Positions 1,671 through 46,935 of a stretch of 46,935 bases of DNA are shown here, one piece after another. A program made the position numbers and the translations under genes. Source of the DNA: Caldilinea sp. CFX5 (GTDB taxonomy: Bacteria; Chloroflexota; Anaerolineae; Caldilineales; Caldilineaceae). The DNA is taken from positions 1 to 46,935 of the forward strand of contig QWII01000128.1 of the NCBI GenBank assembly GCA_021405325.1, given 5' to 3'. The notes under the pieces were generated by a model. That model was not told the DNA's origin. It was given only the letters and a program-made list of their open reading frames with translations, and made no database searches. Each line of letters begins with the position of its first letter. Position 1 is the first letter of the stretch.

Positions 1671-3107
1671 TTATGAGGGCGTCAGGCTTAGATCCATGTC
1701 GATTGTCTGAAGATTTAACAGCAGCGCACCATCGACGGCGGCGCGTTCCTGCGCAGCGGCTGTAAAGCCGGTACGGGCAAAAAAGGCATAGGTGATTTGC
1801 CAACCTTCTTCACCCAACCGAGCAAGGACGCGGGGGCCACGTTCTTCAATCAAACTACGAATGACCTCAACGCCCACTAGATTAGCACCCCATTTACATT
1901 CACCGAGCAAAATTTTGCGTTCGCGCCAGTTGATCGCCACCACATCTATCTCACAATCAGTGGACCAGTGCCGCCCCACAGCATCCGGGATAAAGGAAAG
2001 GCGACCGGCAATGGCTTGCTCCAGCACCCAAGTACGACAGATCTCTTCAAAAGCCGTTTGACCGACAAAGGCGCGCAGCCCTTCGCTGATCAACTCCCAG
2101 AGACGATTGAGCAATCCTTGTTCCAAGAGAACACGATTGGCCGCCAGAAAGCGAAAGTAAAAGCGTAGGTAGGCATCATCCAGCACATAGCGGCCTTGCG
2201 TTGTCCGTTTACCTTTGGGCAAGGTGACCGGCATCTCCCGGCGAATAAAGGTCAGTTCTTGCAAGCGCGCCAGGTAGGTGCTGGCATGGTTTTTCGCCAA
2301 ACCGCTTTGTAGGGCAATTTCATCCAACGTGCGGGCGCCTTCGCCGATGGCGCGGATGATTGCCAGATAGTTAGCCGGCTCACGCACTTCGTCCTGGAGC
2401 AGAAAGAGCGGCTCATGTTGAAAGATGCTCAGCGGCGAGAGAATGACATCGCGCACATTAGTCGCCAGATTCACATCGTCGCTGAACTTCTCTAAATAAG
2501 CCGGAATGCCGCCCAGAATGGCATAGACAGCCACCCGTTGTTCAGCCGTGTACTGGGGATAAAACTGAATCAACGCACGAAAGGGTAATGGCTTCAACGC
2601 TAACTGCGCCGTCGTCCGCCCATAGAGCGGCGCACGATAGCTTAATAGCTCGACCATCATCCCTACTTGTGAGCCGGCCAGCACAAGGACGATCTGTATC
2701 TGTTTGAACTCATGATCCCAGGCATTTTGCAACAATGAAGTTAACGCCGGTTCAGCTTCGGCGGCATAGGGAAATTCATCGATAATCAAAATCAAGCGTT
2801 GATTGGTCGCCAATGTCGCTGCCGCGCGCAAGGCCGTCCCCCAAGTTGAGTAGGTAAAGAGCGGATCACGCGCTTGGCTCGGTTGTATACGTTGGTAGAT
2901 TGCTTGCGAAAAGGTGCGCAAGAGAAGAGCGGATGGTTCGCGCGCCGCTACCCAGTAGATAAAGGGCGTATTTGAACGTTTGGCCCACTCTAACAAGAGC
3001 GTTGTTTTGCCAACCCGCCGTCGCCCATAGGTGATGACAAATTGCGCCCCTGGTCGTTGGAGCAGTTGATTTAGTGCTTTGAGTTCGCGTTCGCGGTCAA
3101 CAAACAT
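1671..3107 (-). CDS. Archaeal-type ATPase with C-terminal DUF234 nuclease-like domain
   Basis: A 478-residue P-loop protein of the archaeal ATPase/DUF234 family. The N terminus has a Walker A (G-R-R-R-V-G-K-T-T, about residues 28-36) and a Walker B (L-I-L-I-I-D-E-F). A winged-helix region follows (about residues 280-320). The C-terminal DUF234 region contains D-C-E-I-D-V-V-A-x(9)-G-E-C-K-W, which looks like a PD-(D/E)xK nuclease core (D, then E-x-K). Such genes are widespread as single copies in archaea and Chloroflexota. Their role is unknown, and involvement in mobile-element biology or toxin-like functions has been suggested. A promoter and a perfect dyad lie directly upstream (3106-3176), so it may be self-regulated. 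No specific substrate can be given. Confidence 0.8.
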   Translation of the reverse strand: MFVDRERELKALNQLLQRPGAQFVITYGRRRVGKTTLLLEWAKRSNTPFIYWVAAREPSALLLRTFSQAIYQRIQPSQARDPLFTYSTWGTALRAAATLATNQRLILIIDEFPYAAEAEPALTSLLQNAWDHEFKQIQIVLVLAGSQVGMMVELLSYRAPLYGRTTAQLALKPLPFRALIQFYPQYTAEQRVAVYAILGGIPAYLEKFSDDVNLATNVRDVILSPLSIFQHEPLFLLQDEVREPANYLAIIRAIGEGARTLDEIALQSGLAKNHASTYLARLQELTFIRREMPVTLPKGKRTTQGRYVLDDAYLRFYFRFLAANRVLLEQGLLNRLWELISEGLRAFVGQTAFEEICRTWVLEQAIAGRLSFIPDAVGRHWSTDCEIDVVAINWRERKILLGECKWGANLVGVEVIRSLIEERGPRVLARLGEEGWQITYAFFARTGFTAAAQERAAVDGALLLNLQTIDMDLSLTPS

Positions 3108-18296: not shown

Positions 18297-20225
18297 TCAC
18301 CAGCCGCCTTTTTTGGCAATGGCCACACCGGTTACCACAATAGCATCGTCTGGCGATGCAGCGATCGTACCGTCGGGCTGCGCCAAACAATGGACGCTAG
18401 TACCTGCCGCCGGGATCACAATTAGCTTAAAGGTGGCGAAAAATACACATTCTTCTTTCGTAAAACCACTAGGTATGGGAATGCTCTGCCCGTTTTTCAA
18501 CCCTGTACCTACGGCAATGCCGACTTCACGCGGCAAAACCCCGGCGGCCAGCTTGGCGAACGTCACGGCGCCATCGGCCAGTTCCGCCGTACCCACACTG
18601 CCATCCTGAATTTTGGCGGCGGTGACAGTATTGTTAGCCAGCTTGGCCGTGGTCACCGCGCCATCGGCCAGGTTGGCGTTGGTGACAGCGCCAGCGGCCA
18701 GTTTCGCCGGGGTGACAGCCGCATCCGCAAGTTTGTTCGTAACGACGCTGCCATCCTGAAGCTTGGCAGTCTGTACCGCATTATCAGCCAACTTAGCTGT
18801 AGTTACCGCGCCATTCGCCAATTTGCCGGCAACCACGCTGCCGTCCTGAAGTTTGTCAGCAGCAACACTGTTAGCAGCAAGCTTGGCGCCTGTCACCGCG
18901 AGCGCGGCCAGTTTATTGCTACTGACGGCGTTGTCCTGAATTTTGGCGGTGGTGACGGCATTGTTCGCCAGCGCCGCTTCGGTGATGGCGCTGCCGGCCA
19001 CTTTGCCAGCGGTGATCGCACCATTCTGGAGGTGGGCTCTCGTCACGGCGTCACTGGCGATCTTGGGCGCGGTGATGGCTGCATCGGCTATTTTGAGCGT
19101 GGTCACGGCGCCAGCGGCCAGGGCGTTGACGCCGACACTGCCGGCCTGCAACTTGGCAGCAGTGACAGCCAGGTCGGCCAGCTTGCCCGTAGTGACACTG
19201 CCTTCCACCAGTTTTGCCGTGGTGACTGCGCTATCGGCCAGCGCCGCTTCGCCCACCGCGCCCACCTGTAACTTGGCCGCCGTCACGGCGCCATCACGCA
19301 GTTGGGCCGTGTTGACCAAATCAGCGGCGAGATTGCCCTGGAGGAGACCAATGACCGTCAGCGCCCCGCCAAAGTGAACATCGCCGCCCTCCACCTTGAG
19401 TTGGTTGGGGCCTGGGTTAGGGGCGCCAATACTCATCTGGTCAGCCGTCAGCAAGCCCACCGTGGTGTTACCCGTCACACGCAAGGCCCCGCCAACCGTG
19501 GTTTGCGGGGCCTTGATGCGCAGCGCATCCCCATCCCCCAGGGCGATTTCAGCGACGCCGAGCGTTTTGACGGTCATGCCGTCCACAGCCGCGCGCTCAA
19601 AGGCCAGCCGCGCGACCCGTTCGCCCAGCAGACGACGGCGATGTGGCTCGGCGGGATCGTTATCGTCGCGTTCGCGTAAGGCCACGACGCGGCCGTTCTG
19701 ATCAATATCGGCGATCGCCAAGACAAGAAACGGAATCCCAGCGATTTCGTCGCCGACCAGCTCGGCGCGCGTGCGCCTGCGTAGCCAGGGCGCCTGCTCC
19801 AGCCGCTCAGCCGGCCCAGTGTCGGGCGCCGGCAGCGCAGACTGGGGTACCTCGGCGAAGCGGATGGTGACATAGACCGTGTCGCCACCTAGGTTGCCGG
19901 TGGGCAAGGGGACGGGTGTCCTGATCAGGTCGTGTTGACCGGCCAACGGATTGGCGCCGATGTTGCCATAGCCGCCGCTCGCCAGCACAATCAGTTGCCC
20001 TTGTTGGTCAATGGCCACACCGGGCTGCACGGTGAGTTCCGAACCACTGGCGCTCACCTCCAGCCCGCGCGCAATGCCCCAGTCGTGCAGCGCCAGATGG
20101 TGCAACTGCAACTGCGGCAGATGATGCCCGACAAAATCGTGGCGGTGGTCGCTCGTGTCATGGGTCACCGCTGTGCTATCGGGGTAGTCCGTTCGCGCAC
20201 TTCTGGGATAGGATAGGTTTGTCAT
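18297..20225 (-). CDS. Fibre protein with 25 ten-residue repeats
   Basis: A 642-residue fibre. Residues 1-205 are the shared attachment domain ([23 protein letters not shown]). Residues 310-559 consist of 25 consecutive ten-residue repeats with consensus [A/Q]-D-G-A-V-T-T-A-K-L. The last 83 residues are a compact distal domain rich in beta-type sequence (T-A-A-S-P-D-D-A-I-V-V-T-G-V-A). Start chosen at the ATG with a GAGGAG site; a GTG six codons upstream would place the site inside the gene. Such repeats occur in phage tail fibres and probably form an elongated trimeric shaft, an inference. Confidence 0.8.
   Translation of the reverse strand: MTNLSYPRSARTDYPDSTAVTHDTSDHRHDFVGHHLPQLQLHHLALHDWGIARGLEVSASGSELTVQPGVAIDQQGQLIVLASGGYGNIGANPLAGQHDLIRTPVPLPTGNLGGDTVYVTIRFAEVPQSALPAPDTGPAERLEQAPWLRRRTRAELVGDEIAGIPFLVLAIADIDQNGRVVALRERDDNDPAEPHRRRLLGERVARLAFERAAVDGMTVKTLGVAEIALGDGDALRIKAPQTTVGGALRVTGNTTVGLLTADQMSIGAPNPGPNQLKVEGGDVHFGGALTVIGLLQGNLAADLVNTAQLRDGAVTAAKLQVGAVGEAALADSAVTTAKLVEGSVTTGKLADLAVTAAKLQAGSVGVNALAAGAVTTLKIADAAITAPKIASDAVTRAHLQNGAITAGKVAGSAITEAALANNAVTTAKIQDNAVSSNKLAALAVTGAKLAANSVAADKLQDGSVVAGKLANGAVTTAKLADNAVQTAKLQDGSVVTNKLADAAVTPAKLAAGAVTNANLADGAVTTAKLANNTVTAAKIQDGSVGTAELADGAVTFAKLAAGVLPREVGIAVGTGLKNGQSIPIPSGFTKEECVFFATFKLIVIPAAGTSVHCLAQPDGTIAASPDDAIVVTGVAIAKKGGW
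18549..19298 (-). repeat. Coding array of 25 thirty-base units
   Basis: Encodes residues 310-559 of the fibre at 18297-20225. Each unit is about 30 bases for a ten-residue motif with V-T and K-L at fixed positions. Units are diverged, not identical. Confidence 0.85.
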
Positions 20226-20314
20226 CGCTCTCTCCTCTACCACAATGATAAACGGATCGATTCATCTTTTTTCAAGTTGGCGTACAAAACACTAGTACAG
20301 AGCGGCCTAAGTAA

Positions 20315-20381: not shown

Positions 20382-21305
20382 TTACGCCGTGGCCGTAATC
20401 GGTTGGCCGGAGGCGTTTTCCACAAAGAGCCATTGGCCGGCCGGGTTGATCTCTAGAAAGACATACTGCCCGTCGGGCGTCAACCGCATGTCAATAGCGC
20501 CATAGGCCAGACCCAGTTGCGCCATCAAGGCCAACAGGCGCGCGTTTACTTCCGCCGGCAAGTCCACGGCTTTGATGCGCGCATTGGCAATATCCATGCG
20601 AAAATCATAAGGATAGGCCGTTTCCTGAGAGTAGATGGCCGCCGGAAAAATGGTGTCGCCAACGACGGTAATGCGCAGGTCGTATACGGCTGGAATGTAT
20701 TCTTGAAAGATGCTCGGCGCGTAGCGGACATTATCAAGGAGATCAACTTCGTCACGCCGCAGCAGGCGGGTTTCGCGCCATTCCTCCTGCGTGGCGGAAA
20801 AGGTTTTGTAGATAGTCTTGTCCACGCCGCAACTTTCGACAAAGTGACGCACCTGCTGCGGATCATTGGAGACCAGCGTCGCCGGGATGGTTAACCCAAC
20901 CTGTTGCGCCACGCGCAGTTGGTAGAGCTTGCGGCTGGCCGTTTCTGTCCGCACAGGGTGATTGACCCAATAGGGATCCAGGAGATGCCAGAGGCCGGCC
21001 CAGGTTTCGGCAATTTCATTGTAAGCAAAGGCGCGATGCGAAGGGCGCGCCAGGGCGGCATGGAGGCCAAAGGGCTGGGGGCGGCGCCACCAAAGCGCAC
21101 CACATTGGGCCAGATCCAGTGTACCCAGGGCGCTTCCGGCAAGAACGAGGGATGCCGGCGCCCCCGTAGGAAAGGCAACCGTTAGGGTAAGCCCTTGGGG
21201 GAAGTGGGAGAGATCGAGCAGCGTGGCCGGCGCCCCTTGCTCGGTCAGCACTTTCAACACGGCAGTGGCATGGCCGTCATGCGCAGCAGAAACAACGAGG
21301 ATCAT
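20382..21305 (-). CDS. ATP-grasp ligase of the MvdC/MvdD (graspetide macrocyclase) type
   Basis: A 307-residue ATP-grasp enzyme. The pre-ATP-grasp domain carries W72-W73-R74-R75-P76, like the W-x-R-R-P signature of RiPP ATP-grasp ligases. The grasp domain has K167, E202-Y, D209/R211, R236/D238, D272 and the metal-binding E285-I-N287-P-A-G-Q, as in MvdD-like enzymes that make omega-ester or omega-amide crosslinks between Thr/Ser/Lys and Asp/Glu side chains. Its ATG overlaps the stop of the upstream fibre gene (ATGA), and that fibre ends in T-x-K-x-x-D-D repeats, so the fibre is the likely substrate. No transporter, GNAT or separate precursor gene is adjacent. Other ATP-grasp roles such as glutamate-tail ligation remain possible. 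Confidence 0.82.
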   Translation of the reverse strand: MILVVSAAHDGHATAVLKVLTEQGAPATLLDLSHFPQGLTLTVAFPTGAPASLVLAGSALGTLDLAQCGALWWRRPQPFGLHAALARPSHRAFAYNEIAETWAGLWHLLDPYWVNHPVRTETASRKLYQLRVAQQVGLTIPATLVSNDPQQVRHFVESCGVDKTIYKTFSATQEEWRETRLLRRDEVDLLDNVRYAPSIFQEYIPAVYDLRITVVGDTIFPAAIYSQETAYPYDFRMDIANARIKAVDLPAEVNARLLALMAQLGLAYGAIDMRLTPDGQYVFLEINPAGQWLFVENASGQPITATA

Positions 21306-23467
21306 GACGGGTCCCCTTTCATGAGTGTTTCATATTCCGCCAGCAAATCGGCATAACTTTGTTGCAGCGCGGCCAACTGCTGCGTTTGCGCCTCACTCAA
21401 CGCCTGGGTTGCACCTTGTTGCTCAAGCGCCCGAATCAGCAGCGTATGTTGCACCAGTTGCTGGGCCAGCGCCGCCAGTTCGCTCTGGCGTAAGGCAGGA
21501 TGGGATGCCAGCCAGGCCATCGTATGATGCGGCGTGGCTAAGGCGAAGGGTGCGGCCGCTAGATTGGACGCCTGGTGCGGTTCAGGAGATCGGTTAATAA
21601 CCATATCCTCCAGCTTTTTGACGGTGTTGCCATCATCGAAGTTTTTAATCGTGGTGAAATCATCACTGTTTTTGTTTGTGAAGGTATCAACTTGCGGGTC
21701 AGTAAGCGGATCATCCTGGTCCTTGATTGTAAATTGATCAGTTTGTGGGTCGGTAGTCCCATCATCGCGGAACTTTAACGTCATTTGATCATCTCGCGGA
21801 AGGGTTATTATATCCTGGCCGGGTGCTGTTGGTGCATCGGCGATTGGATCGGTTGGCGCCGGCTCTTCCAACTTGGCAACCCGCGCTTGCAGATCCGCTA
21901 GCCCTTGCAGCAAACCGGAAAGGGTGGACTGTACACTTTGCGCCAATTTATTCTCGTTGACCGCACCATCGGCCAATTCGGCGCTCCCCACACTACCATC
22001 TTGAAGCTTGGCGGCAGTGACCGCCTTGTCGGCCAATTTGACGGTGTCCACCGCGCCATCCGCCAATTTGACGCCCGTGACGGCGCTGTCGGCGAGTTTC
22101 GCCAGGGTGACAGCCGCATCAGCGAGTTTGTTCGTACTAATGCTTTTATCTTGTATTTTGGTGGTTTGTACAGCATTATCAGCCAACTTAGCTGCGGATA
22201 CCGCGCCATCGGCCAATTTGCCGTCAACGACACTGCCATCCTGAAGTTTGGCGGCCGTCACCGCGCGATCAGCCAGCTTGGCGCTATTGATAGCACTGTC
22301 TTGAATTTTAGGGGTAGTGACGGCGTTATTGGCCAGCGCGGTTTCGGTAATGGCGCCATTCTGGAGGTGAGCGCTTGTCACCGCCTCATTCGCTAACTTG
22401 GTTGTAGTGATGGCGCGGTCCGCCACTTTGAGCGTGGTCACGGCACCGTTGGCCAAGGCACGGTCGTCGATGCTCCCCACCTGCACCTTGCTAGCGGTAA
22501 TGGCGCCATCGGCCAGCTTGGTCGTAGTGACACTGCTATCTTGAAGCTTAGCGGTGGCGACTGCGTTGTTGGCCACTTTTGCGCCGGTCACGGCGTCGTT
22601 GGCCAGCGCCGCTGCCCCCACAGCACCGGCTTGCAGTTTGGCGGCGCTCACGGCGCCATCGCGCAGTTGGTCAGTATTGACCAAATCGGCAGCGAGATTG
22701 CCCTGGAGGATGCCAGTAACCGTCAACGCGCCACCGACCGTGGTTTGCGGGGCGGTGATACGTAGCTCGTCACCAGCGCCTAGGGCAATCTCGGCGCCAG
22801 CGAGTGTCTTGACGGTCATCCCCTCTACAGCGGCCCGGTCGAAGGCCAGCCGCGCGACCCGCTCGCCCAGCAGCCGGCGGCGATGTTGCTCGGCCGGGTC
22901 ATTGTCGTCGCGTTCGCGCAGCGCCACGACACGGTCGTTCTGGTCGATGTCGGCAATGGCCAAGACCAGGAATGGCACCCCTGCCGCTTCGTCCCCTACC
23001 AACTCGGCGCGGGTGCGCAGGCGCAGCCAGGGCGCCTGCTCCAATCGCTCTGCCGGTCCGGTGTCCGGCGCCGGCAGCACAGACTGGGGGATCTCCGAGA
23101 AGCGGATGATGACATAGACCGTGTCACCCCCCATGTTGCTTGTTAATAAGCGCACCGGCGCCTTGAGCGGATTGTATTGCCCGGCCAGGGGGTTGCCGCC
23201 CGTATCGCCATAGCCGCCACTGGCCAGCACGATCAGTTGGCCCTGTTGGTCAACCGCCACGCCAGGCTCCACGGTGAGTGTCGTGTCACTGGCGCTCACT
23301 TCCAGGCCGCGCGCAATGCCCCAGTCGTGCAGCGCCAGGTGGTGCAGCCGCATTTGCGGCAGATGATGCCCGACAAAATCATGACGATGGTCGCTCGTGT
23401 CATGGGGCACCGCTGTACTATCAGGATAGTCGGTTCGCGCCGTTCTGGAATACGATAGATTTGTCAT
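21302..23467 (-). CDS. Fibre protein with ten-residue repeats and C-terminal graspetide-like core
   Basis: A 721-residue fibre. Residues 1-205 are the shared attachment domain. Residues 269-508 contain 24 ten-residue repeats (consensus A-D-G-A-V-T-A-A-K-L), and a short coiled coil follows at about 512-534. Residues 555-621 carry six T-x-K-x-x-D-D-like units. The last 100 residues are mainly helical and Gln/Leu-rich. Start chosen at the ATG preceded by AAGGAG (residue 19 of the longest open frame). The gene overlaps the ATP-grasp gene by four bases. I infer that the core units are crosslinked after translation, making a stiffened or protease-resistant loop on the fibre. An unmodified metal-binding or acidic linker is the alternative. 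Confidence 0.82.
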   Translation of the reverse strand: MTNLSYSRTARTDYPDSTAVPHDTSDHRHDFVGHHLPQMRLHHLALHDWGIARGLEVSASDTTLTVEPGVAVDQQGQLIVLASGGYGDTGGNPLAGQYNPLKAPVRLLTSNMGGDTVYVIIRFSEIPQSVLPAPDTGPAERLEQAPWLRLRTRAELVGDEAAGVPFLVLAIADIDQNDRVVALRERDDNDPAEQHRRRLLGERVARLAFDRAAVEGMTVKTLAGAEIALGAGDELRITAPQTTVGGALTVTGILQGNLAADLVNTDQLRDGAVSAAKLQAGAVGAAALANDAVTGAKVANNAVATAKLQDSSVTTTKLADGAITASKVQVGSIDDRALANGAVTTLKVADRAITTTKLANEAVTSAHLQNGAITETALANNAVTTPKIQDSAINSAKLADRAVTAAKLQDGSVVDGKLADGAVSAAKLADNAVQTTKIQDKSISTNKLADAAVTLAKLADSAVTGVKLADGAVDTVKLADKAVTAAKLQDGSVGSAELADGAVNENKLAQSVQSTLSGLLQGLADLQARVAKLEEPAPTDPIADAPTAPGQDIITLPRDDQMTLKFRDDGTTDPQTDQFTIKDQDDPLTDPQVDTFTNKNSDDFTTIKNFDDGNTVKKLEDMVINRSPEPHQASNLAAAPFALATPHHTMAWLASHPALRQSELAALAQQLVQHTLLIRALEQQGATQALSEAQTQQLAALQQSYADLLAEYETLMKGDPS
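21605..21805 (-). other. Graspetide-like core repeat region
   Basis: Encodes residues 555-621 of the fibre. The units are T555-L-P-R-D-D, T563-L-K-F-R-D-D, T580-I-K-D-Q-D-D, T597-N-K-N-S-D-D, T606-I-K-N-F-D-D and T615-V-K-K-L-E-D. The Thr spacing is 8, 17, 17, 9 and 9. Microviridin cores have a similar T-x-K followed by acidic residues. Confidence 0.6.
21944..22663 (-). repeat. Coding array of 24 thirty-base units
   Basis: Encodes residues 269-508 of the fibre at 21302-23467; same ten-residue motif family as in the fibre at 18297-20225. Confidence 0.85.
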
Positions 23468-23526: not shown

Positions 23527-25320
23527 CTACAAACTGTCTTCGCTGCTATCGCGCTGGTGCATATAGGTGATGCCACGGGTTTCCGGCTGATCATAGGCAC
23601 GGGGATAGAGATATTTCCCTTTGACTTCGGCACTCTTTTCTTCTTCCGGTACGATGCGATTGGCATTGGCAACGGGATCTTTTCGAATGCCGGTCACCTG
23701 CCAAGCGACTTCCATATGCGGGCTGCCGCCGGCGATCTTAAAACGATTCGCTTGCATCTTTTGCGCAATATAGAGGCCGGGGGCCGGTACACCGAGGGCA
23801 GTTAACTGATAACAAAGATTAGCGTTAATTGCTTCAAACCACTGCGGTAAGTCGACCCACGCTTCGCCCTGGTCATCTAACGTAACAACACCATCATATA
23901 TATTTTTCATGTCGGGCGATTCAACGAAAGAATGGTTGAGATATTTGTTCGCCGGATCAAGGGGGTGATCGATCTGGAAGCCGCCGCTACTTTTGGTAAG
24001 ACGCCCACGGATGTCCACATCACCCAAGAATTGGGCGGCGATACGTGGTACACGATCGTAATCCAAACGTCCAGCAACAAGCGCCGGCGCTGTATTTTCA
24101 TGCCGTGCAACATTCACAAAAAATTCAGCAGCACTGCCAAGACCGGCATTTACTGCATAGAGTGCGGCCCATTTATTATCTTTGTTTTCGACACGGAATT
24201 CTCCAGCCCGTCCAGCATCTCCATCTATACCGACATAAAGTGCTGACTGACGCTTTTGTTTGACCGGGATGATGACCCCGCCTTTCGCTACTGTTTCGCC
24301 ATATTGAGGTTTATCCTCCCAGAAACTTGTTCCTGGATCACCCCTGTCTCCTTTTTCCCCTTGAGGGCCTTGCGGGCCACGCCCACCTTGCAAACCTTGG
24401 GGACCGCGTTCACCTTGCGGTCCTCGCTCACCTTGCGCACCGCGTTCACCCTGAATGCCTTGCAACCCTTGGGGACCGCGCTCACCCTGCGGACCTGGTG
24501 GCCCCTGCGGCCCGCGTTCACCCTGGAGGCCGGCTTTTTCACCTTTCCACTCACGCCGACTGTTGATGACTTCGACACCCTCGACCATGATGCGCTGTGC
24601 GACGTTCAGAGGGCCATGGACAGCGAAGGTGTTATTCTGGCCGGCGCCGACTGTGACGACGTCCACTGTCGTCACCTGATTGTCTTGCACAACAGGACGG
24701 CGGAAGCTGAGAGTTTCGCCCAGCAGACGACGGCAATGTTGCTCGGCCGGGTCGTTATCGTCGCGCACACGCAGCGCCACGACACGGCCATTCTGGTCAA
24801 TGTCGGCAATCGCCAAGACCAGGAATGGCACCCCTGCCGCTTCGTCTCCTAGCAACTCGGCGCGGGTGCGCAGGCGCAGCCAGGGCGCCTGTTCCAGTCG
24901 GTTGGCCGGCCCGGTGTCCGGCGCCGGTAATACCGATTGGGGTAACGCCGAGAAGCGAATGGTAATATAGACCGTGTCACCACCCAGGTTGCCGGTAAAC
25001 AAGGGCGCCGGTGTTTTCACTGGGTTGTGCTGCCCGGCCAGAGGGTCGGCGCCGGCGTCACCGTAGCCCCCGCTCGCCAGCACAATCAGTTGGCCCTGTT
25101 GATCGATTGCCACCCCAGGCTGCACCGTGAGTGTTGAGCCAGTAGCGCTCACTTCCAGCCCGCGCGCAATGCCCCAGTCATGCAGCGCCAGATGGTGCAG
25201 CCGCATTTGCGGCAGATGATACCCAATAAAATCGTGCCGATGATCGTCGGTGGTATGGGTAGCCGCCGTACTGTCGGGATAATCGGTCTTTGAAAGCCTT
25301 GAGTATTGCTGGCTGTTCAT
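23527..25320 (-). CDS. Fibre protein with collagen-like segment
   Basis: A 597-residue fibre. Residues 1-205 are the shared attachment domain ([23 protein letters not shown]). Residues 263-330 are about 22 uninterrupted Gly-Xaa-Yaa triplets (G-P-Q-G-E-R-type), a trimeric collagen-like shaft. The distal part contains a beta-rich region and a conserved-looking [21 protein letters not shown] segment with following domain, which I recall as a C-terminal domain of other bacterial surface and fibre proteins. Start chosen at the ATG with GAGGAG; an earlier ATG 12 codons upstream lacks a site. Expected to bind a target surface. Confidence 0.82.
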
Positions 25321-25403
25321 AATCACTCCTCTCCGCGCCGGTGACATCTGCACCACCCCGTTTCGACAGCCGACGGACCAGCAATGATGCAGCTATTGCG
25401 TTT

Positions 25404-36370: not shown

Positions 36371-37039
36371 TTACTCCACCGAGGGAATGATTAAGACTTG
36401 CCCCGCCTTTAGCTCGCGCGGGTTGATAATTTGGTTCGCTTCGGCAATCGGCCGCCACCGCGCCGGATTTTTATACTCTTCGTCGGCAATGCTCCACAAG
36501 GAGTCGCCCTGTTTGACGACGCGCGTTCTGGCCTGTAAGGGCGAATTGCGATGGCGCCGGGTTTCGCGCAACTGTCGCTCCGGGTCCTTCACTTCTTTGA
36601 ATTGCACATCCAACGTTGCGCGTACCGGTGTGCCATTTTCCAAAAACATGGTAAACTTCTGGGTAATGCTCTCCATGACACCGGTGAAGGGCAAGCCGGC
36701 ATAGGCGTCCATTGTCGGCCCCCAGGTGATCGTACAGACAGGTGGGCGATCTTTGCCTTCCGCCACTTCGGCCAACTTGGCAATCTGCTTGGTGAATTGG
36801 CGCACATCCTTGTTGCCCGTATTCTCATAGCTATCAAATTGCAGCGAGAGCGATAGGGTGCGCGAGCCGCCGCTGTCAAATTGAACCTGCGGCAGATCCA
36901 GGCCGCGGGCTTTACTCTCCTTCCAGTTCACTCGTTTCTGCAAGGTGTACTGGTTCGGATTAAAAAAGATGCGCGTCTCGGCGCTGGCCTCAATGGTTTC
37001 ATTGGCATCGGTTTTAATCACCACACGGGTTAGCGCCAT
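36371..37039 (-). CDS. CIS tube-initiator/baseplate protein with C-terminal LysM
   Basis: A 222-residue protein. The first 160 residues match the 'CIS tube protein' family (Afp7/Pvc7): I-F-F-N-P-N-Q-Y-T-L-Q-K-R-V-N-W, L-S-L-S-L-Q-F-D-S-Y-E, and T-W-G-P-T-M. A LysM domain follows (V-K-Q-G-D-S-L-W-S-I-A-D-E, about residues 175-220). It is thought to sit between hub and tube, and LysM may hold the baseplate or bind peptidoglycan. Its start overlaps the end of the DUF4157 gene by ten bases. Confidence 0.93.
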   Translation of the reverse strand: MALTRVVIKTDANETIEASAETRIFFNPNQYTLQKRVNWKESKARGLDLPQVQFDSGGSRTLSLSLQFDSYENTGNKDVRQFTKQIAKLAEVAEGKDRPPVCTITWGPTMDAYAGLPFTGVMESITQKFTMFLENGTPVRATLDVQFKEVKDPERQLRETRRHRNSPLQARTRVVKQGDSLWSIADEEYKNPARWRPIAEANQIINPRELKAGQVLIIPSVE

Positions 37040-39000
37040 AGTTGGATCCCTCTCCGTTCTTGTTCAAAGCGTTGGCGGCGCTCAATCCAGGTATAGACTT
37101 GTTGGGCCAGCCGCTCCAGATCCACCGGCGGCGCGGCATTGGCGGCGGATGGTGGGGTGGGGCCGGGCGTTCCGGCCGCCGGCGTCACCGGCCGGCTGGC
37201 GCTCTCTTCTTGGCGCAGGGGGGCGGTGGTCAGCGTATGGGTAGGCCAAGCCAGATGCAGGCGTGGGAAAGCGCTATCGCCGCCTGGCGCTGCCAGCACA
37301 GGGTCGGCGCTGCGTGAGCCATGGACGTAACCGGCGCCTACGGCGCCATAGCTTCCCCCCAGCGACGATGACGGCGCGCCGCGCAACAGCAGCGCCGTGC
37401 CTGTTTGCGCCTCCTGCTCCAGGGTGCGCTGCTGCATGGCCGTAAGCGCCCCGGCAGCCAGGGGCAGACCGCCCGGCTGTTGACGCACATGCAGCAGTTC
37501 ATGCAGCAGCAAAGCCTGGCCCGCCTGGGTCTGGGGCTGAAAGCGGCCGGCGGCAAAGAAAATATGGGAGCCGACGGTAAACGCCTGGGCATGCATATGC
37601 GCAGCCAGGGCCGCGGCGCCACTGTCCGTATGCAGACGCACCGTCCCTAGATCAAAGCCGACGGTTTTTTCCAGCCGCGTGCGCAACCCAGGTTCGACCG
37701 CGCTGCCGCGCGACAGCCGTTGTGCCGGCGGTCGCTGCCCCGCCGGTGGGGCCGTGGCGGCCTCATTTGCCGTTCGCGGCTGAAGGGTCATGGGCACGGC
37801 TTCGGCGTTGCCAGGCCAGGGCGCGACCGCGGCCCCAAGCTGCGGCAGCGGTTGTGACACAGGGACGGCGCCTGGCGGCGGCGCAATCCGGAGAGCAGTT
37901 GCCAACCGGCGTAACTGGGTGCCTGGTGGTGGTTCAGCGCCAAGAGGGCGATAGGCGGCGCGGTCCAGGGCCTGGGTGGCCGAGGGCAGCCGTGGCCCAT
38001 TCACTGGTAAGCGTGGCACTGGTGACACAGGCGCCGTCACCCTGAGCCGGGCCGGCTGTTCCTGCGCCTGTCTGACAAGGGTGCGCGCAGGGGTTGACCC
38101 TATCTGCGCGACTGGCGGTGCGTGTGCCGGTAACAACCACCCAATCGGCTGTTGCGCCGGCAGCGCCATACCGCCGGCGCCCCAATCGGAAGTGGAGGAC
38201 AGCGGCGACGGCCCCATCGACCGGTTGGATCGGAACAGCATGCCTGCCGTCCGGCCAAATAGAGTCGGCGACAATCGGGGCGCTTCAGTGCGCACGGCCA
38301 GGGAAAGAGGACGACACAGAAAGGGCAGGACGATCGGTTGTCGCTCCGATGCCGCCGGTTGCATTGGCAGGAAGGGGATAGCCCCGGTGCGCCACAGCGC
38401 AGCACGATTGTCATGGATAAGCGCCGAGTGTACCGGCCCCGACGGCTCGCTGATCGGTGGTGGCGTCCCCGGCAATCCAGCATTCAGGTACGCTGGCCGC
38501 TGGGCCATAGGCGCCAATCGGGCCAGCGCCGGCAGAGACGCCGGTGCGAACGGCGCCGCGGTTGACCAAACTGGGTGCGGTACGCCGGGCATTACGATCC
38601 CCCAGGCTTGTGCAGCAGTCACCGCCTGGTTACGCTGGGGCCTTCCCATTGCACCGGATGGCGACAGCAGTTCAAAGGCGTTGCGCCCAGCGTGTGGCAA
38701 CATAGTTGCCAGTGCAGCCGTTCCAGATCGGATGAGCGGCGGCATTTCCGGCTGGTGGGCCAGGCGATAGGCCAAACGCAGCAAGGGCCAGCGAAAGGTT
38801 GCAGCCTGTCGATCCAGACTCAGCAGGCGCAGCCGATGGTGCGCTTGCCGGCTGATCAACCTGGTGGCGGCCGCCACCGTCGTCAAGGCGGATCTGGCCC
38901 GCGGCGCGCCCGGCCAGCGCGTCTGGCGCTGTTGCAACTGGTTTAACAGTGGCGGTTGTATGGGTGCTTTAGGATTGGTTAACTTTAACATCGAATCCAT
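37030..39000 (-). CDS. eCIS core DUF4157 protein, Pro/Ala-rich
   Basis: A 656-residue protein. The first about 420 residues are low-complexity Pro/Ala/Arg-rich. Then follows a DUF4157 ('eCIS core') domain, about residues 430-510, with V-G-F-D-L-G-T-V-R-L-H-T and the zinc-protease-like H500-E-L-L-H504, within A-L-L-L-H-E-L-L-H-V-R-Q-Q-P-G-G. The C-terminal 140 residues are disordered. DUF4157 is frequent in eCIS clusters, including on payloads; whether it is a protease, a cargo-processing factor or cargo is unsettled. Two possible starts, ATG at 39000 (GGAG ten bases upstream) or 38991; I chose 39000. It overlaps both neighbours. Confidence 0.85.
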   Translation of the reverse strand: MDSMLKLTNPKAPIQPPLLNQLQQRQTRWPGAPRARSALTTVAAATRLISRQAHHRLRLLSLDRQAATFRWPLLRLAYRLAHQPEMPPLIRSGTAALATMLPHAGRNAFELLSPSGAMGRPQRNQAVTAAQAWGIVMPGVPHPVWSTAAPFAPASLPALARLAPMAQRPAYLNAGLPGTPPPISEPSGPVHSALIHDNRAALWRTGAIPFLPMQPAASERQPIVLPFLCRPLSLAVRTEAPRLSPTLFGRTAGMLFRSNRSMGPSPLSSTSDWGAGGMALPAQQPIGWLLPAHAPPVAQIGSTPARTLVRQAQEQPARLRVTAPVSPVPRLPVNGPRLPSATQALDRAAYRPLGAEPPPGTQLRRLATALRIAPPPGAVPVSQPLPQLGAAVAPWPGNAEAVPMTLQPRTANEAATAPPAGQRPPAQRLSRGSAVEPGLRTRLEKTVGFDLGTVRLHTDSGAAALAAHMHAQAFTVGSHIFFAAGRFQPQTQAGQALLLHELLHVRQQPGGLPLAAGALTAMQQRTLEQEAQTGTALLLRGAPSSSLGGSYGAVGAGYVHGSRSADPVLAAPGGDSAFPRLHLAWPTHTLTTAPLRQEESASRPVTPAAGTPGPTPPSAANAAPPVDLERLAQQVYTWIERRQRFEQERRGIQLWR

Positions 39001-39415
39001 CGTGTACAAGCTCCAACGTTTCCAGCGCAATGGCGCTGTTGTCGGCCTTCAGATCCGGCCCGATCCATTTCACAGGATAGGCATTCTTAAAAGTCCAGCG
39101 CCACTGCTCTTGGCCCTGGCTATCCAACAGCAGCACATTGACCATTTTGCGCTTGACGTTGCCCTGCACCACATCTTTGTGCCATTGCCAAAGCACATCG
39201 GAGGTGGTGATGCCATGTTTCAGGGTGAGGTTGGTATATTTGCTGCTCTTGGGCAGCCGATGCACCGTGTCGTTGACGCCCCCTTCCTGAATCTCTTCGA
39301 CCTCGGTTTCCACCTGCAAGCCGGCGCATTCCGAGAAACCGGCCTCGATCAAACTATCGATCTCGATTTTGAAGCGAAAGGCAAAGAGCGGGTCGGTTCG
39401 TTGTCCATTAGCCAT
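38969..39415 (-). CDS. Inner tube protein (gp19-like), second copy
   Basis: A 148-residue tube protein of the T4 gp19/phage tail tube family (Afp5-like). Visible are F-R-F-K-I-E-I-D, A-G-F-S-E-C-A-G-L-Q, R-L-P-K-S-S-K-Y-T-N-L-T-L-K-H-G, W-H-K-D-V-V-Q-G, and the terminal strand. It is related to the first tube protein at 39954 in overall layout. The two tube proteins probably occupy different rings, the second nearer the baseplate. The gene follows the DUF6760-like frame by three bases. Confidence 0.93.
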   Translation of the reverse strand: MANGQRTDPLFAFRFKIEIDSLIEAGFSECAGLQVETEVEEIQEGGVNDTVHRLPKSSKYTNLTLKHGITTSDVLWQWHKDVVQGNVKRKMVNVLLLDSQGQEQWRWTFKNAYPVKWIGPDLKADNSAIALETLELVHDGFDVKVNQS

Positions 39416-45839: not shown

Positions 45840-46935
45840 TTATGGCACAAGCCGCCTTACATCTCTCAGTCCCGGTGTTGGCTCGAAATATAATCTTCGT
45901 GCAAAGTCCTGGTCTTGCAATGCACCGGAAGGATAGGCGCTAGCTGGAGCATGGATTGTCCAGCCACTGTCTGAAAGATCGCGAATGCCGCCGATGGTTG
46001 TATCTTGATGAAGTTTCGTCCAATAGATGTGAGCGCTTTGTAACCCTTTCTCGCTTCCCTGACTCCCTTTGATTTCACGCAGCATTCCTGCCAGTAGCGA
46101 GCAACACGCGTCACATGGACTCATATGAAAGTTTCTAATTTCAATCCTTTCTATATTCTGTTTGACTAGTGGTTGACTAGCAAGCCATAGGTCAAACTGA
46201 TATTCAGCATGAGAAGTTGAATCACGTTGGGACAACTTATCCTGTGACGTGTTCCAAGTGACGGCGCGTATTGTAGACGAAGATGGATTGGCTGGCGGCA
46301 AAATTACACCGAGCGCGTGTAATCTTGTTCGGTCTCTGCGGACATCGGCAGGAATAATGCCTGGCTGTACCGGGATCGGTTGCCGCATTGTCAATTGCAC
46401 GGCTGTCGTTACTGAGCGCCCTTCCGGTGTATCTGCTGCGGCAGCCGTTCGCAATTCGCCAAGAGGAAATGCAGGGCTTGCTTCGCCATAAATTGTAAAT
46501 GCGCCTGCTGCCGACCTTGGACCTATATAAAGCCGTCTCAGCCCCTGCGGCTGAAATTGGGCTGTGATCTCACGCAGCACTCGTTCAACTTCAGCTTGCG
46601 CTTGTATGCTCCGTAAGCGCTCTCGCAACACGGTTTGCACCTGTTGGCGCATATCACCTTGCGTTGGAGAAAGCCCAGGGGTACGCGCAGATGTATCGGG
46701 GCGAGTTGGCGCTCCGCCACTGTCTGTCGTCGTTGCACCAGATGGCCTACGTCCTGATGGTGCGGCTCCTTGCGTTGCTGTCACAGGACGGGCTGCTGGC
46801 AATGGTGAACCCGGACGAGTGTCGGGGCGCGCTGCGCCAGTCGGTGTGGCTCCCGGTCGCGCCGGCACACCGGCTTGACGTCCTGCCGGCGCGCCGGCGA
46901 CTTGGGCGCGCGCCGGGGCAGGTTGCGCCGCACGT
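45840..46935 (-). CDS. Deaminase-domain protein, candidate eCIS payload (5' partial)
   Basis: The frame is open to the right edge, so the start is outside the window. From the last in-frame GTG at 46868, the numbering is: residues 1-70 Pro/Ala/Arg/Thr-rich and probably disordered, about 75-105 helical, and then a domain ending at 342. Near its end are H220-A-E222 and P251-C252-D-A-C255, the zinc and proton-transfer residues of the cytidine deaminase superfamily. A nearby W-N-T-S-Q and I-E-I-R-N-F-H fit the fold. Polymorphic toxins with such deaminases mutate nucleic acids in target cells. Position at the head of the eCIS cluster and no signal peptide suggest a cargo. No immunity gene is seen downstream. 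Confidence 0.7.
   Translation of the reverse strand, partial: RAAQPAPARAQVAGAPAGRQAGVPARPGATPTGAARPDTRPGSPLPAARPVTATQGAAPSGRRPSGATTTDSGGAPTRPDTSARTPGLSPTQGDMRQQVQTVLRERLRSIQAQAEVERVLREITAQFQPQGLRRLYIGPRSAAGAFTIYGEASPAFPLGELRTAAAADTPEGRSVTTAVQLTMRQPIPVQPGIIPADVRRDRTRLHALGVILPPANPSSSTIRAVTWNTSQDKLSQRDSTSHAEYQFDLWLASQPLVKQNIERIEIRNFHMSPCDACCSLLAGMLREIKGSQGSEKGLQSAHIYWTKLHQDTTIGGIRDLSDSGWTIHAPASAYPSGALQDQDFARRLYFEPTPGLRDVRRLVP

What the first reader, a model, noticed from the sequence alone, without database searches (positions are those of the whole stretch)
20382..23467. Injection-system fibre with a graspetide-like core beside its own ATP-grasp ligase
The fibre at 21302-23467 ends in six repeated units, T-L-P-R-D-D, T-L-K-F-R-D-D, T-I-K-D-Q-D-D, T-N-K-N-S-D-D, T-I-K-N-F-D-D and T-V-K-K-L-E-D (residues 555-621). 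The Thr/Lys donors followed by paired acidic residues resemble microviridin-type cores. The next gene overlaps it by ATGA and encodes an ATP-grasp ligase with W-W-R-R-P and E-I-N-P-A-G-Q motifs typical of side-chain crosslinking RiPP enzymes. Inference: a structural fibre is crosslinked by a dedicated macrocyclase, which would stiffen the tip or make it protease-resistant, or create a new receptor-binding loop. I know of no described contractile particle with such a modification. The C-terminal 100 residues could serve as a follower recognition region (a P-F-A-L at 640-643 is weakly reminiscent of leader motifs).
Basis: partly seen in the sequence, partly recalled or inferred. Interest (0 to 1): 0.94.

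Follow-up and report, generated by a model that had tools for sequence, protein, structure and literature searches.

The report
Injection-fibre tip with crosslinking tail
One tail-fibre gene of a bacterial contractile injection system ends in a repeat-bearing tail that other bacteria attach to peptidases, with a microviridin-type ligase gene directly behind it, so the fibre tip is predicted to be stitched into small side-chain rings, a modification for which we found no report in an injection particle.

Summary
Fibre 21302-23467 (-) ends in T-x-K-x-x-[D/E]-D repeats, and its stop overlaps the start of ligase 20382-21305 by ATGA. The ligase is of graspetide type: PF21068 passes its cut-off, the best solved relative is the microviridin macrocyclase MdnC, and its model matches MdnC at TM 0.86. 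The array is larger than reported: ten T-x4-[D/E] units, five with Lys.

The main new result: this tail is one example of a portable module. Of 40 genome loci with a ligase relative, 29 have an intact large gene directly upstream; these end in acid repeats (weak in two) and 28 of 29 have a Pro-Phe motif after them. Of 20 given to Pfam, 19 are peptidases of several folds (one a weak match) and one a tyrosinase. The window and P0122 are the only fibre carriers seen. Lys3 and acid7 co-occur within proteins.

Crosslinking is inferred; no mass data exist. Its use to the particle is open. A 2022 survey saw such ligases beside peptidases but predicted no precursor; here the peptidases look like the precursors, though identity of the families could not be checked.

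The parts
21302..23467 (-). Tail-fibre gene (721 aa): CIS13-like N-terminal region, ADGAV/LADGAV-type repeat shaft, then core array and putative follower
   Evidence: NCBIfam CIS13_fam weak hit (2.7e-6, 26.9 bits, cut-off 370) and position in the fibre block
21605..21853 (-). Core array: ten T-x4-[DE] units, five of them T-x-K-x-x-[DE]-D (residues 539-621)
   Evidence: low-confidence, probably disordered in the model
21518..21550 (-). Putative ligase-recognition motif PFALATPHHTM (P640, F641)
   Evidence: PF motif in 28 of 29 and TPHH in 18 of 29 intact carriers; invariant in a chosen 15-row alignment; fits the published Phhx(1,2)h leader motif
21302..21538 (-). Helical end of the follower tail
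   Evidence: AlphaFold helices, block pLDDT 78-97 over model residues 141-210; aligned in carriers of other folds
20382..21305 (-). Graspetide-type ATP-grasp ligase (307 aa), predicted to crosslink the fibre tail
   Evidence: PF21068 above cut-off; TIGR04187, TIGR04184, TIGR04185 best but below cut-offs; 5ig9 best PDB; model pLDDT 93.6
18297..20243 (-). Paralogous fibre with LADGAV-type repeats, no core or follower
23527..25356 (-). Paralogous fibre with collagen-like repeats, no core or follower
   Evidence: PF01391
15639..17618 (-). Paralogous fibre ending in an S74 chaperone domain, no core or follower
   Evidence: PF13884
25664..45085 (-). Rest of the contractile injection system: CIS13/CIS12-like, baseplate J, gp25, PAAR, VgrG-like, LysM tube protein, eCIS_core protein, tube proteins, sheath, Pvc16-like

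Best explanation
A contractile injection system of an unnamed bacterium carries, on one of its four related tail fibres, a graspetide-like module (an array of ten Thr-x4-acid units followed by a putative C-terminal recognition tail) with a graspetide-type ligase gene overlapping it by four bases, and this ligase is predicted to crosslink the fibre tip by side-chain esters and amides. SHOWN by sequence: the array, the follower motif, the ligase family, and the same module-plus-ligase pair on unrelated enzymes in other phyla. INFERRED: the ligase binds the PFALATPHH follower and works on the core N-terminal to it; Thr(i) to Asp/Glu(i+5) would give lactones and Lys(i) to Asp/Glu(i+4) lactams, up to 15 rings, each losing 18 Da. 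INFERRED, weaker: the ring-bearing segment acts as a stiff, protease-resistant tip or linker, one of several alternative fibre endings of the particle (the others: collagen-like, S74, plain repeat shaft).
For: Ligase family: PF21068 28.9 bits (cut-off 27); TIGR04187 235 bits against RimK family 42; MdnC 5ig9 9.5e-41; model pLDDT 93.6, TM 0.86 to 5ig9, 0.69 to RimK. Module: of 40 genome loci found, 29 gave an intact large upstream ORF; these carry T- or K-led acid repeats (weak in L027 and L031), with a PF motif after them in 28 of 29 (not L027); L053 is a 30th such pair. Of the 29, 20 were given to Pfam and all 20 matched an enzyme family: 5 M43, 2 astacin, 3 subtilase, 8 trypsin-like, 1 weak S7-like, 1 tyrosinase. 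Spacing in 22 proteins: Thr to acid at i+5 180 times, 41 expected (i+6 83, 40 expected); Lys to acid at i+3 89 and i+4 93, about 20 expected. Covariation: in 14 proteins that mix both unit kinds, 52 units have Lys3 and acid7 together, 32.8 expected, 0 of 100,000 within-protein shuffles reach it. Tree: the 45 carrier-clade ligases (window, 22 with known carriers, 22 database proteins of unknown context) stand apart from all 8 outgroup ligases used, one of them microviridin-type. Second fibre: P0122 keeps units and follower, 75% identical over the tail.
Against: No mass spectrometry exists; crosslinking is inferred. The ligase misses the curated cut-offs of all NCBIfam models it matches. Natural C-terminal followers were not met in the passages read of four graspetide papers. 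The TPHH part of the follower is absent in 11 of 29 carriers. Lys3 without acid7 occurs (4 of 227 units) and acid7 without Lys3 (8 of 227); units were chosen by T-x4-[DE], and tandem duplication makes them non-independent. Only two fibre carriers are known, and P0122's neighbouring genes could not be read. Clade support for the carrier-linked ligases is modest (94/76, 84/79), the root is arbitrary and several outgroup branches are long.
Confidence: 0.77

Rival explanations
1. The tail is a graspetide precursor that is cut off and released: the fibre gene has only captured a core, and the product is a free crosslinked peptide, perhaps a protease inhibitor like the microviridins.
For: All characterised graspetides were called protease inhibitors in a 2022 survey (PMC8939145 passages); 19 of 20 carriers given to Pfam are peptidases. 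Some neighbours recur within a carrier kind (a protein of about 105 aa before 5 of 6 M43 carriers), so extra processing genes are not excluded for those.
Against: No gene recurs across carrier kinds among 23 neighbourhoods compared; one carrier is a tyrosinase and one a fibre, with no peptidase domain to inhibit; no Gly-Gly occurs in fibre residues 480-721.
Confidence: 0.13
2. The ligase is a RimK-like enzyme that adds single residues or poly-glutamate to the fibre or another protein, and the repeats are an unrelated acidic, metal-binding or flexible linker.
For: RimK-family profiles also match, weakly (41.8 bits); repeats are Asp-rich.
Against: Microviridin-type profiles and structures score far higher; repeats and ligase co-occur across phyla on unrelated proteins; Lys3-acid7 covariation.
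Confidence: 0.06
3. The crosslinks are between fibre chains rather than within one chain: the ligase would staple the subunits of a fibre trimer to each other at the tip.
For: Tail fibres of this type are usually trimers (general knowledge, not tested); a helix, modelled with low confidence, precedes the core; donor and acceptor lie in every unit, so both readings fit.
Against: The short fixed spacings i+5 and i+4 and the enzyme carriers fit rings within one chain.
Confidence: 0.1

Closest known systems
Corallotide (graspetide group 15, PMC13097080; passages read)
   Same: Large precursor with five repeated K-x3-D units closed as Lys-Asp amides by a TIGR04187 ligase
   Different: Free-standing precursor with an N-terminal domain, hydroxylated by an oxygenase that the ligase needs for full activity; no Thr-x4-Asp unit or C-terminal follower in the passages read; not on a fibre
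Microviridins (MdnA with MdnB and MdnC)
   Same: Ligase fold and sequence (5ig9); Thr and Lys donors, Asp/Glu acceptors; P-F recognition motif
   Different: Short peptide with PFFARFL leader before the core (order seen in L057), two ligases; here the motif lies after the core, on a 721-residue structural protein, with one ligase
Peptidase-linked graspetide ligases (branches 7 and 8 of PMC8939145; group 32 of PMC13097080; passages read)
   Same: Ligases next to peptidases of several unrelated families
   Different: No precursor was predicted for branches 7 and 8; here the large upstream protein itself carries core and follower. Whether our family is one of those branches or group 32 could not be checked
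eCIS tail fibres (catalogue PMC12923769; passages read)
   Same: Fibres with interchangeable endings; collagen-like and S74 endings are described there
   Different: 'crosslink' and 'isopeptide' do not occur in its main text (other spellings not searched), nor 'ATP-grasp' with 'contractile injection system' in any held paper

Membership tests
Graspetide (RiPP with side-chain lactone/lactam rings) | MvdC/MvdD-type ATP-grasp ligase beside the precursor | tested here: met
   but below NCBIfam curated cut-offs
Graspetide (RiPP with side-chain lactone/lactam rings) | Core with Ser/Thr/Lys donors N-terminal to Asp/Glu acceptors | tested here: met
Graspetide (RiPP with side-chain lactone/lactam rings) | Recognition sequence with P-hydrophobic-hydrophobic motif | tested here: met
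   PFALA present, but after the core; published for about half of precursors
Graspetide (RiPP with side-chain lactone/lactam rings) | Rings formed (loss of 18 Da each) | not testable with these tools
   needs co-expression and mass spectrometry
Microviridin | Short precursor with N-terminal PFFARFL leader and microviridin core, two ligases | tested here: not met
   721 aa fibre, motif C-terminal, one ligase, different core
TIGR04187 (GRASP_SAV_5884) maturase subfamily | Score at or above the curated cut-off of 350 bits | tested here: not met
   235 bits
Extracellular contractile injection system | Sheath, tube, spike, baseplate J, gp25, eCIS_core protein in one cluster | tested here: met
Extracellular contractile injection system | AAA+ ATPase of the cluster | tested here: inconclusive
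   none among the structural-cluster ORFs scanned (not every small ORF was scanned); an AAA protein at 1671-3107 is distant and was not tested for this; the cluster may go on beyond the window

The most novel reading that the evidence does not exclude
Bacteria own a portable 'stapling tag': a C-terminal core-plus-follower module with its dedicated ligase that has been fused to peptidases of several folds, a tyrosinase and an injection-system fibre, to turn flexible tails of whole folded proteins into chains of covalent side-chain rings; on the fibre it builds a covalently stapled tip, the first such part of a contractile injection particle, and on the peptidases it explains the missing precursors of peptidase-linked graspetide ligases.
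Probability: 0.6. Interest if true: 0.9.

Novelty: new variant of a known kind. Interest (0 to 1): 0.84.

Why it matters
Graspetides are known as peptides, the characterised ones mostly protease inhibitors. A ligase family that modifies the tails of large folded proteins would change what such enzymes are for, give a natural counterpart to the engineered follower constructs of 2026 (PMC13003496), offer precursors for peptidase-linked ligases that had none, and add a covalent modification to the parts list of contractile injection systems. It is directly testable with two genes in E. coli.

Tried and rejected
Own-genome search: none held. Viral contigs: no relative of ligase or fibre confirmed. 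Phages: two records with distant ligases, not followed. Plasmids: 81 records with a match, 30 listed, 5 fetched; of these five, only L053 (55% identity) has the module; L054 and L055 show no such upstream protein, L056 has another acidic array, L057 a microviridin-like precursor. Sampling of genomes at E <= 1e-60: 1 of 400 (phylum of L001), 1 of 347 (phylum of L004), 2 of 343 (phylum of L003), 1 of 250 (order of L002); all five are loci already known, so no new carrier kind came from these. Collagen-fibre search gave 10 of 301 genomes, C-terminal domain only, not followed. Tail model: mean pLDDT 61, only the end helices confident, so no fold search was made with it.

Rejected: RimK reading; protease-inhibitor-in-cis as a general rule, because of the tyrosinase and fibre carriers. 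Neighbourhoods: one search suggested that only carrier and ligase recur, but its gene picking lost several ligases, so it was redone with all frames. That corrected it: no gene recurs across carrier kinds, but a protein of about 105 aa precedes 5 of 6 M43 carriers (L002, L003, L004, L009, L053), and some genes are shared by two loci (L006 and L027; L010 and L026; L010 and L028). Two further groups of 3 and 4 loci look like chance or opposite-strand frames and were not examined. The pattern for the follower was faulty and was replaced.

Papers: search listings; passages of PMC8939145, PMC12291112, PMC13097080, PMC13003496, PMC12923769; no paper was read whole. No held paper has both 'contractile injection system' and 'ATP-grasp'; 'isopeptide' with 'tail fiber', 'phage' and 'intramolecular' gave none. 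Only open-licence papers are searched, so absence in print is not proven.

Rows dropped before counts: the spacing test left out L011, L013, L015, L016, L017, L024, L025, L030 and all P rows; one search left out L011, L013, L015, L016, L023, L024, L025, L030 and P0244 as near-duplicates. Of the 40 loci, L008 (broken frame) and L014 (cut) show the module but gave no intact ORF; L032 and L034-L037 show no such carrier; L033 and L038-L040 are fragments. Pfam was run on 20 of the 29 carriers. Confidence was lowered by 0.01 and the first rival raised by 0.01 because of the neighbours found.
Full report
WHAT IS THERE. The window holds, on the minus strand, a contractile injection system: Pvc16-like protein, sheath, tube proteins, eCIS_core protein, LysM tube protein, VgrG-like proteins, PAAR, gp25, baseplate J, CIS12/CIS13-like proteins and four related fibres. 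One fibre, 21302-23467, ends differently from the others: ten T-x4-[D/E] units (residues 539-621), of which five are T-x-K-x-x-[D/E]-D, then PFALATPHHTMAW and a helical tail. The other fibres and the CIS13-like protein have no T-x-K-x-x-[D/E][D/E] and no TPHH motif. The next gene overlaps by ATGA and encodes a 307-residue ATP-grasp protein.

THE ENZYME. PF21068 (MvdD pre-ATP-grasp) passes its gathering score. Among NCBIfam models TIGR04187, MvdD and MvdC score 235, 186 and 183 bits, all below their curated cut-offs; the RimK family scores 42. The best solved relative by sequence is 5ig9, the microviridin macrocyclase MdnC with its precursor. The AlphaFold model (pLDDT 93.6) matches it with TM 0.86, CdnC with 0.85, PruB with 0.81, PsnB with about 0.8 and RimK with 0.69. 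In the 37 aligned ligases W72, R74, R75, P76, E285, N287 and G290 are invariant.

THE MODULE IS PORTABLE. A scan of one genome per species gave 40 loci with a relative of the ligase. In the 29 with an intact large upstream gene, that protein ends in T- or K-led acid repeats (weak in L027 and L031); a Pro-Phe motif follows in 28 of 29 and the fuller PF-x-x-x-TPHH in 18 of 29. Twenty of the 29 were given to Pfam: five M43 peptidases, two astacins, three subtilases, eight trypsin-like, one weak S7-like match and one tyrosinase. A plasmid relative (L053) has the same pair without annotation. No other gene recurs across carrier kinds in 23 neighbourhoods; within the M43 kind a protein of about 105 aa precedes 5 of 6 carriers. 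In the ligase tree M43-linked enzymes form one group, the trypsin-linked ones a few groups, and the window ligase, P0001 and P0002 lie in a 14-row group (97/91) with the tyrosinase-linked one; all eight outgroup ligases, one of microviridin type, lie outside the carrier set, though support for that set is modest (94/76), the root is arbitrary and several outgroup branches are long. The fibre module was found in one further protein, P0122 (a length- and word-limited search, whose other four hits were M43 peptidases), whose units differ in filler residues while Thr, Lys and acid positions are kept.

LIKELY CHEMISTRY. In 22 proteins Thr-to-acid distances peak at i+5 (180 seen, 41 expected) and Lys-to-acid at i+3 and i+4 (89 and 93, about 20 expected). 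Within 14 proteins that mix unit kinds, Lys3 and acid7 go together in 52 units, 32.8 expected, never reached in 100,000 shuffles; tandem copying makes units non-independent, so this is support and not proof. K-x3-D is the spacing shown by NMR for corallotide (PMC13097080, passages). So the inferred rings are Thr1-acid6 esters and Lys3-acid7 amides. All this is inference until masses are measured.

FOLLOWER. Known graspetide leaders precede the core; a P-h-h-x(1,2)-h motif was found in about half of precursors (PMC8939145). An engineered fuscimiditide precursor is still modified when its leader is moved behind the core (PMC13003496). Here the motif (PFALA) and its tail follow the core by nature. 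The Nostoc plasmid stretch L057, which has no annotation in the collection, shows the usual order, PFFARFL then core, beside a distant ligase.

WHAT IT DOES FOR THE PARTICLE. Not known. The fibre block offers several endings (collagen-like, S74, repeat shaft, module-bearing tail). The simplest reading is a stiff, protease-resistant end or linker. Release of a free peptide is less likely, as no gene recurs across carrier kinds and the fibre tail has no Gly-Gly. Stapling between chains of a fibre trimer is possible.

COMPARED WITH WHAT IS KNOWN. It works like a graspetide system and meets the sequence-level features tested; it is not a microviridin. A 2022 survey found two ligase branches beside unrelated peptidases and could predict no precursors (PMC8939145); a 2026 survey lists a group with diverse neighbouring proteases (PMC13097080). 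The present data suggest that in such loci the peptidase itself carries the core, but whether these are the same families could not be checked here. No paper in the library holds both 'contractile injection system' and 'ATP-grasp'.

Noticed in passing
L001 8406-9851: A tyrosinase from an uncultured Chloroflexi bacterium ends in TLKFxDD repeats and PFVLATPHHS, next to the ligase closest to the window's among the genome loci: a non-peptidase enzyme carrier.
   Followed up: partly
L002-L031, upstream genes: Peptidases of several folds carry the core themselves, which may be the missing precursors of peptidase-linked graspetide ligases; by eye the frames begin without an obvious signal peptide, though start codons are uncertain.
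   Followed up: partly
L002 7897-8205, L003 8029-8352, L004 8099-8413, L009 7744-8061, L053 4066-4401: A protein of about 105 aa is conserved directly before five of six M43 carriers; function unknown, absent from the window.
   Followed up: no
L010, L011, L013, L015-L017 upstream genes: Core arrays without Lys (TSILDD, TNVLRD) in Marivita and related alphaproteobacteria: predicted ester-only versions.
   Followed up: partly
window 37030-39030: eCIS_core domain protein of 666 aa inside the cluster, possible cargo.
   Followed up: no
window 45840-46868: Weak match (below cut-off) to an AID/APOBEC-like deaminase clade beside the injection system.
   Followed up: no
window 23527-25356: Fibre with a collagen-like Gly-x-y stretch; its C-terminal domain recurs in 10 of 301 genomes of the phylum of L001.
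   Followed up: no
L056 3079-3984: Croceicoccus plasmid protein with repeated acidic stretches directly before a distant MvdC/MvdD-type ligase; looks like another array precursor.
   Followed up: no
L057 3521-3718: Microviridin-like precursor (PFFARFL, then TYKYPSDLED) on a Nostoc plasmid, not annotated in the collection.
   Followed up: no
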